Shown here piece by piece: positions 1 through 942 of a DNA stretch of 11,980 nucleotides. The stretch comes from Mycobacterium sp. GTDB taxonomy: Bacteria > Actinomycetota > Actinomycetes > Mycobacteriales > Mycobacteriaceae. The position numbers were made by a program, and so were the translations under genes. How positions within the stretch are numbered: position 1 is the stretch's first letter; each line of letters starts with the position of its first letter. A model generated the notes under the pieces. That model worked only from the letters and a program-made list of their open reading frames with translations, did not search any database and was not told the DNA's origin. The DNA lies in assembly GCA_025965815.1 (NCBI GenBank), contig JAOPWF010000245.1, positions 1 through 11,980 of the forward strand. Reading direction: 5' to 3'.

Positions 1-942
1 CGACAACTCCTGCTCGAGCGCCATCAGCTCGACGAAGTAGTGACCCAGTGCGGTGTAGGCGGCGCTGCCGGTGGCCAGCCGCACCACGTCGGCGGTGACG
101 TTGGGATTGCCGTCCCGGTCGCCGCCGATCCAGGACCCCGGGCGCAGGATCGGTTCGGGCAGCAGGCCGGCGTCGGGCCACCGGGCCTGCAGGGCGGACC
201 GCACCTCGGCATTGACCTGCGGGATGACCTCGAAGAATGCTGCCGGGTAATAGCGCAGCCCGACTTCGATCTCGTCCTGGATCTTCAGCCGGGACAGCCG
301 GATGAGCGCGGTCTGCCACAGCATCAGGATGTGGCGGCGCAGTTCGAACTCGATGTCGCGGCCGTCGTCGGTCTGGGTGTGGCCGTTCATCCGCCGCCGC
401 ATCAGTTCGGTGATGCGGTGCTGGGTGTCGAAGACGGTCCGGCGTCGCGTCTCGGTGGGGTGCGCGGTGATCACCGGCGAGTCCTGGGCCAGGGTCAGCG
501 CGTCGGCGAGCGTCGCGGAGTCCAGGTCGGCCGTGTCCAGCTTCAGTTAGGTGGCGGCCAGGCTGCTGTCCTGGGGCGGTTCGCCCGCCTCGACGTGCAG
601 GGCGCGCCGGCGCTCACGGTGAATGTCCTCGGCAACGTTGGCGAGCAGCGCGAAGTGGGTGAACGCCCGGATGACCGGGATTGCCTGGTGCACGTCGATG
701 CCGTCGAACATCTGCGCCAGCTCGGCGCGGTCGATCTCCGACCGCCGCACCCGGAACGACTCCACCCGGGCGCGCTCGACGAGCTCGAACACCTCCTCGC
801 CGTTCTGCTCGCGGACGGTGTCGCCCAGGAACGCGCCGAGCAGCCGGATATCTTCGCGCATCGGCTCGGTCGCTTCCCGGCCCACCTGAGTGCGGCGGAC
901 CGAACCGATCGGCTCCAGCGCGACATCGGTAACCTCAGCCAT
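1..942 (-). pseudogene. ppc: Phosphoenolpyruvate carboxylase, 5' part, interrupted by an in-frame TAA
   Basis: PEP carboxylase makes oxaloacetate from PEP and bicarbonate in the cytosol, an anaplerotic step. The ATG at 942 gives MAEVTDVALEPIGSV, followed by GREATEPMREDIRLLG and EDIHRERRR, all typical of the actinobacterial PEPC N-terminus. Codon 132 (547-549) is TAA. Beyond it the same frame stays open to the window edge and still encodes the catalytic-histidine motif VITAHPTETRRR (His about 161) and the substrate-site motif WIGGDRDGNPNVT, about 314 codons in all of a family length near 930. As I recall the M. leprae protein, it has Tyr at this place (SSLAATYAKLD), so the stop would be TAC to TAA. 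The first fragment (131 aa) lacks every catalytic motif, so as written the gene is broken. A sequencing or assembly error is the main alternative. No Shine-Dalgarno is visible; GATACT (949-954) lies 6 nt before the ATG. The family call is very secure; true pseudogene status is uncertain. Confidence 0.9.

What the first reader, a model, noticed from the sequence alone, without database searches (positions are those of the whole stretch)
547..549. Single in-frame TAA in an otherwise intact ppc
The PEPC frame reads SSLAAT-stop-LKLD and then stays open for 182 more codons to the window edge, with the key motifs VITAHPTE and GGDRDGNPNVT unchanged. Absence of any second lesion points to a very recent C-to-A change (TAC to TAA, if Tyr is ancestral as I recall in M. 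leprae) or a base-calling error. If real, this strain has lost PEP carboxylase and would rely on pyruvate carboxylase or PEP carboxykinase for anaplerosis. The gene is, to my knowledge, also missing from M. tuberculosis, so loss is tolerable in the genus.
Basis: partly seen in the sequence, partly recalled or inferred. Interest (0 to 1): 0.7.

Follow-up and report, generated by a model that had tools for sequence, protein, structure and literature searches.

The report
Lone stop codon in draft ppc
An enzyme gene in a fragmentary environmental Mycobacterium genome is cut by one stop codon that no examined relative shares, and because several unrelated genes in the same draft are cut the same way, it is more likely a sequence error than a real gene loss.

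Summary
An in-frame TAA at 547-549 separates two pieces that match PF00311 at profile positions 1-104 and 109-289. The rest of ppc is on another contig (C579: profile 323-919, no stop). In 108 of 109 relative loci the column could be read, and all 108 hold a sense codon with identical spacing.

The inferred loss of PEP carboxylase is not supported. The window is one whole contig of an 877-contig, 81%-complete draft. In 101 contigs of that draft (624 kb), four more genes carry one isolated stop inside a Pfam domain that resumes right after it: aceE, a Clp ATPase paralogue, a catalase and a P450. The same scan of 364 kb of a better assembled relative gave none among 15 resolvable of 21 candidates. 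Two probable frameshifts and one fusion of two half genes also turned up. A consensus error in a thinly supported draft explains this best (about 0.7); a recent real nonsense mutation remains possible (about 0.26). Raw reads would decide. Interest is low.

The parts
550..942 (-). ppc, N-terminal part (131 codons from the likely start ATG at 940-942 to the codon before the stop)
   Evidence: PF00311 profile 1-104; 80 of 80 named relative loci align over more than 80% of it
547..549 (-). in-frame TAA stop codon
   Evidence: read directly; sense codon in 108 of 108 readable relative loci
1..546 (-). ppc, next 182 codons, open to the contig edge, with the VITAHPTE and GGDRDGNPNVT motifs
   Evidence: PF00311 profile 109-289; the gene goes on in contig C579:3-1856
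1..474 (-). frame from the first possible restart codon after the stop (GTG at 472-474), which is the first codon of the VITAHPTE motif
   Evidence: ORF list; first ATG/GTG comes 24 codons after the stop. Not expected to give a working enzyme (inference)
1489..3788 (-). pgk, tpiA and secG, intact neighbours of ppc
   Evidence: PF00162, PF00121 and PF03840 matches over nearly the whole ORFs

Best explanation
The TAA is most likely a wrong consensus base in a fragmentary draft genome, probably assembled and binned from a metagenome. The organism most likely carries an ordinary, working ppc. Mechanism (inferred): where few reads, or reads from more than one strain, support a contig, the consensus picks up isolated wrong bases. 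Most fall unseen as missense or silent changes, and the few that make stops appear as lone in-frame stops in otherwise conserved genes. Shown: several genes of this draft carry such lone stops, and the ppc lesion is private to it among the relatives examined. Inferred: low read support at this spot.
For: (1) The window is one whole contig of a draft with 877 contigs, completeness 80.9 and contamination 3.2. The shortest of the 101 contigs sampled is 2,501 bases, as after a 2,500-base binning cut-off (inference). (2) Lone stops are spread over the draft: of 26 scan candidates in 624,244 bases, 5 are stops inside one Pfam domain that resumes at nearby positions: ppc; PDH E1 middle domain 10-80 then 85-229; AAA_2 1-75 then 77-166; catalase 1-321 then 323-381; P450 316-387 then 400-432. 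Of the rest, 13 are ordinary gene borders and 8 unresolved. (3) Control: the same scan of 363,753 bases of the relative G013 gave 21 candidates: 0 interruptions, 15 gene borders, 6 unresolved, one of these not scanned with Pfam. By hand, 5 of 18 against 0 of 15 resolved gives one-sided Fisher p of about 0.04. (4) The aceE match is the only one in the draft and all 10 relative loci read have a sense codon there; a living Mycobacterium lacking aceE is unlikely (essentiality recalled). (5) Of ten frame-switch candidates checked with Pfam out of 30, two look like frameshifts and one is a fusion of two half genes (L139: AMP-binding_C 1-38 of 76, then Acyl-CoA_dh_N from 54 of 113). (6) Three of the 5 lone stops lie 522-547 bases from a contig end; by hand about 14% of the searchable bases lie that close. 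(7) ppc itself breaks between contigs within about 550 bases of the stop.
Against: Five broken genes in 624 kb is within the range of real pseudogenes in many bacterial genomes (recalled), and the catalase, Clp and P450 genes could be dispensable: a second catalase piece and two further Clp loci exist in the draft. The control comparison is small. The excess near contig ends was noticed afterwards; 2 of the 13 ordinary borders and 5 of the 8 unresolved candidates also lie within 550 bases of an end. Around the stop there is no other sign of errors: 0 changes at 135 invariant columns in the two flanking ppc pieces. Over six pieces of four proteins G000 has 4 of 821 private changes (4.9 per 1,000), against a median of 1.2 per 1,000 in 63 relatives, 3 of which score higher and 3 the same. 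Frame-switch candidates are only mildly more frequent than in the control (30 in 624 kb against 12 in 364 kb), and the control's were not checked with Pfam. No reads were available.
Confidence: 0.7

Rival explanations
1. A real, very recent nonsense mutation in this strain or in part of its population. The strain makes no full-length PEP carboxylase and fills the TCA cycle through pyruvate carboxylase.
For: The stop is clean, with no other lesion in the 913 ppc codons compared. Both sides of the stop still look constrained: crude dN/dS against six relatives is 0.05-0.12 for the N piece, 0.08-0.16 for the next piece and 0.10-0.14 for the C579 piece, as expected of a fresh lesion. No private changes at 135 invariant columns flank it. 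A frame of 1,153 codons with the pyruvate carboxylase PYC_OADA domain and no stop is present. 3 of 36 same-genus genomes lack the N piece.
Against: The same draft has lone stops in four other genes, including its only aceE match. No second assembly with this stop was found: among 120 listed of 400 database proteins none is closer than 92% to the N piece, and the only two that end at the same residue are 84-85% identical to it.
Confidence: 0.26
2. The stop is read through or recoded, so a full-length enzyme is made.
For: Constraint is the same on both sides of the stop, and several conserved genes carry lone in-frame stops, which a reassigned or suppressed stop codon would also give.
Against: Over the columns of four interrupted genes (ppc, aceE, catalase, Clp; 108, 10, 11 and 1 relative loci read) the commonest residues are of three kinds and no residue occurs in all four columns, so no single reassignment fits. 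Both TAA and TAG occur among the five stops. The 22 tRNA genes found have no suppressor anticodon, though the draft is incomplete. In the same window pgk, tpiA and secG end normally at TAA, TGA and TAG.
Confidence: 0.02
3. ppc is an old pseudogene in a decaying, M. leprae-like genome.
For: A stop codon in a metabolic gene, with a few other broken genes in the same draft.
Against: Low dN/dS on both sides and no further stop in 913 codons, with colinear spacing in the relatives. The draft holds 5.66 Mb at 81% completeness, and only five lone stops were confirmed in 624 kb.
Confidence: 0.02

Closest known systems
Mycobacterial PEP carboxylase (ppc, PF00311)
   Same: Sequence, motifs and the pgk-tpi-secG-ppc neighbourhood (secG, tpi and pgk covered in 73, 65 and 54 of the 80 named ppc loci, which are cut at 4 kb or at contig ends); 108 of 108 readable relatives are colinear across the stop.
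   Different: One in-frame stop, seen in no relative examined.
Spurious pseudogenes from consensus errors in draft or metagenome-assembled genomes (class recalled; a paper search on it, listed 2 papers, seen as a listing only)
   Same: Isolated lesions scattered over unrelated conserved genes, a fragmentary assembly, and a half-gene fusion.
   Different: No reads could be examined, so the class is inferred and not proven.
ppc absence in other mycobacteria (M. tuberculosis; PMC3141028 passage)
   Same: Would mean no PEP carboxylase.
   Different: There the gene is absent; here it is complete but for one codon and about 4 unseen bases between contigs.

Membership tests
PEP carboxylase (PF00311) | Pfam match in consecutive profile pieces | tested here: met
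   1-104, 109-289 and 323-919 of 919 in three pieces searched apart
PEP carboxylase (PF00311) | catalytic motifs VITAHPTE and GGDRDGNPNVT (role recalled) | tested here: met
   both present in window 1-546, minus strand
PEP carboxylase (PF00311) | one uninterrupted reading frame | tested here: not met
   TAA at 547-549
PEP carboxylase (PF00311) | enzyme activity | not testable with these tools
   no culture or assay
Real nonsense pseudogene | lesion present in the organism's DNA (reads, second assembly) | not testable with these tools
   no reads; nothing closer than 92% identity to the N piece among the 120 proteins listed of 400
Real nonsense pseudogene | relaxed constraint or further lesions | tested here: not met
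   dN/dS 0.05-0.16 and no other lesion; a very recent loss would also fail this test
Consensus error in a draft assembly | similar isolated lesions in unrelated conserved genes of the same draft, and not in a better assembly | tested here: met
   5 of 18 resolved candidates in G000 against 0 of 15 in G013; small numbers, p about 0.04 by hand
Consensus error in a draft assembly | excess of odd missense changes in the same genes | tested here: inconclusive
   4 of 821 against a median of 1.2 per 1,000, but 3 of 63 relatives score higher and 3 the same
Stop codon reassigned to one amino acid | the interrupted columns of different genes hold the same residue in relatives | tested here: not met
   three kinds of commonest residue over four genes, none common to all four columns

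The most novel reading that the evidence does not exclude
All five lone stops are real, and this environmental Mycobacterium lineage has very recently entered a burst of nonsense decay that includes ppc and its only aceE match, the kind of early step that could precede M. leprae-like reduction.
Probability: 0.07. Interest if true: 0.45.

Novelty: not a real feature. Interest (0 to 1): 0.08.

Why it matters
It mainly warns that a lone stop in a draft genome should be weighed against the rate of lone stops in the rest of that draft before a metabolic loss is inferred. If the stop were real, it would be one more mycobacterial lineage without PEP carboxylase. Passages of PMC6918074 argue that this enzyme is the likely essential anaplerotic route in M. 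leprae, while M. tuberculosis has other enzymes at this node.

Tried and rejected
Gene border instead of interruption: rejected, since the PF00311 match resumes at once after the stop. Second intact ppc copy: none found; the only two PF00311 matches in the draft are the two parts of this gene. The same truncated protein elsewhere: 6 of the 120 listed proteins end within six residues of the site; two end at the very residue and are 84-85% identical, and the closest of the six (92%) ends three residues further on by the script's ungapped count. Suppressor tRNA: none seen among 22 tRNA genes. Excess of private missense changes: inconclusive. Frame-switch scan: of 30 candidates in G000 I checked ten with Pfam, namely the nine strongest and the thirteenth (L154, taken because it lies near a contig end): three probable lesions, four gene borders, three unresolved. 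The other 20 in G000 and all 12 in G013 were not checked. The ORF at 1003-1449 was searched in the 80 named ppc loci: no match at E 1e-5. Plasmid collection: three records with short matches to ppc of other genera. Searches failed because one coordinate pair in each crossed a stop; one search was run with that ORF left out.

Full report
What is there. The window is the whole of contig C39 (11,980 bases) of a draft Mycobacterium genome of 5,661,858 bases in 877 contigs, completeness 80.94, contamination 3.2. That it is a Mycobacterium follows from the named relatives: the 80 loci kept of 234 related ones in the one-genome-per-species collection carry Mycobacterium, Mycolicibacterium or Mycobacteriaceae titles, apart from one labelled only Actinomycetota. 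On the minus strand ppc starts near 942 and runs off the contig at base 1. Its frame is cut by TAA at 547-549. Searched apart, the two pieces match PF00311 at profile 1-104 and 109-289. The remainder is on C579: frame open from base 3, 600 codons from base 57, profile 323-919, no stop. In 107 of 107 measurable relative loci the spacing implies about 4 unseen bases between the two contigs.

Relatives. 108 could be read through the column and all have a sense codon, with the two pieces exactly one codon apart; L098 ends too early. No protein closer than 92% to the N-terminal piece is among the 120 listed of 400 matches in the large protein database, so no second assembly of the same species was found there; that search sees only proteins of 0.55 to 1.75 times the length of the piece.

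Is the gene decayed? No. Crude Nei-Gojobori ratios against six relatives are 0.05-0.12 before the stop, 0.08-0.16 after it and 0.10-0.14 on C579. At columns invariant among the relatives the two flanking pieces have 0 of 135 private changes. Over six pieces of ppc, secG, tpi and pgk G000 has 4 of 821, against a median of 1.2 per 1,000 in 63 relatives with at least five of the six pieces; three relatives score higher and three the same. This fits a lesion that is either very recent or not in the organism at all.

The draft as its own control. I trained a codon score on long high-GC3 frames and listed stops with 50 open, strongly coding codons on both sides. In 81 contigs of G000 (494,955 bases) there were 24, and 2 more in 20 further contigs with the score retrained: 26 in 624,244 bases. 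Pfam on the pieces, searched apart, sorts them into 5 interruptions, 13 borders between different or complete genes, and 8 unresolved, one of which is antisense to ppc on C579 and was not scanned. The interruptions are ppc; aceE (L163 543-545, contig of 4,008 bases); a Clp ATPase paralogue (L118 3757-3759); a catalase (L128 4667-4669, minus strand); and a P450 (L164 522-524). A sixth, a short-chain dehydrogenase (L137 207-209), stops in mid-domain, but its downstream piece had no match; it is counted as unresolved. aceE has a single match in the draft; 10 of 10 relative loci read have a sense codon at its column, as do 11 of 11 for the catalase and 1 of 1 for the Clp paralogue; P450 relatives were not fetched. 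The catalase search matched 31 of 37 genomes, but only 11 relative loci were fetched and read.

The other control. In 363,753 bases of G013 (same genus, 160 contigs, completeness 96) the scan gave 21 candidates: 15 borders, 6 unresolved (one of them not scanned with Pfam), no interruption. By hand, 5 of 18 against 0 of 15 is one-sided Fisher p of about 0.04, a modest result. Scaled to the draft, 5 in 624 kb would be about 45 lone stops, with wide error.

Other damage in the draft. A frame-switch scan gave 30 candidates in G000 and 12 in G013, not a clear difference. Ten of the 30 were checked (the nine strongest and the thirteenth): one splits a Peripla_BP_4 domain between two frames (L124 near 3822), one ends an Aldedh domain at 201 of 461 at the switch (L190 near 147), and one joins half an AMP-binding C domain to a truncated acyl-CoA dehydrogenase (L139 near 3088); four are ordinary borders and three unresolved. 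The other 20 and the 12 of G013 were not checked.

Contig ends. Three of the five lone stops lie 522-547 bases from a contig end. By hand, about 14% of searchable bases lie within 550 bases of an end. This was noticed after the fact; 2 of the 13 ordinary borders and 5 of the 8 unresolved candidates also lie that close, so it is a hint only. Thin read support towards contig ends would explain it (inference).

Recoding. At the stop columns of ppc, aceE, the catalase and the Clp paralogue the relatives read show three kinds of commonest residue, and no residue occurs in all four columns. Both TAA and TAG occur among the five stops, and the 22 tRNA genes found show no suppressor anticodon. One reassigned or suppressed codon does not fit.

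If it were real. A frame of 1,153 codons with the PYC_OADA domain and no stop, most likely pyruvate carboxylase, is present; PEP carboxykinase PF00821 was not found in this incomplete draft. 33 of 36 same-genus genomes have the ppc N piece. A passage of PMC3141028 says that PEP carboxylase is absent in M. tuberculosis. Passages of PMC6918074 say that M. leprae has only PEP carboxylase and PEP carboxykinase at this node and argue that the former is likely essential there. So loss would be tolerable but is not established.

Verdict. The stop codon is in the sequence, but the best-supported reading is a consensus error in a fragmentary draft (0.7), then a recent real nonsense mutation (0.26). Interest is low. 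The decisive test is the raw reads.

Noticed in passing
window 1400-1474, + strand: A 32-base unit repeated 2.3 times head to tail with 100% match, at the 3' end of an ORF (1003-1449) that lies between ppc and secG; the unit length is not a multiple of three. The ORF's protein has no match at E 1e-5 in the 80 named relatives' ppc loci, so it may be an insertion peculiar to this lineage.
   Followed up: partly
window 4972-5643, + strand: ORF with the look of the C-terminal half of a DUF222/HNH (13E12-like) protein (recalled), between ORFs that look like gap and whiA (recalled); no Pfam match at E 0.001. Possibly a remnant of a mobile element.
   Followed up: no
L163:543-545 +: Lone TAA inside aceE, the only match in the draft; 10 of 10 relative loci read have a sense codon there.
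   Followed up: yes
L128:4667-4669 -: Lone TAG inside a catalase; 11 of 11 relative loci read have a sense codon.
   Followed up: yes
L118:3757-3759 +: Lone TAG inside a Clp ATPase paralogue downstream of grpE and dnaJ; among 10 same-genus genomes only G002 has a close relative (87%; the others' best are 49-52%). An accessory heat-shock cluster worth a look.
   Followed up: partly
L139 near 3088 +: Half of an AMP-binding C-terminal domain runs straight into a truncated acyl-CoA dehydrogenase: a misjoin or a deletion.
   Followed up: partly
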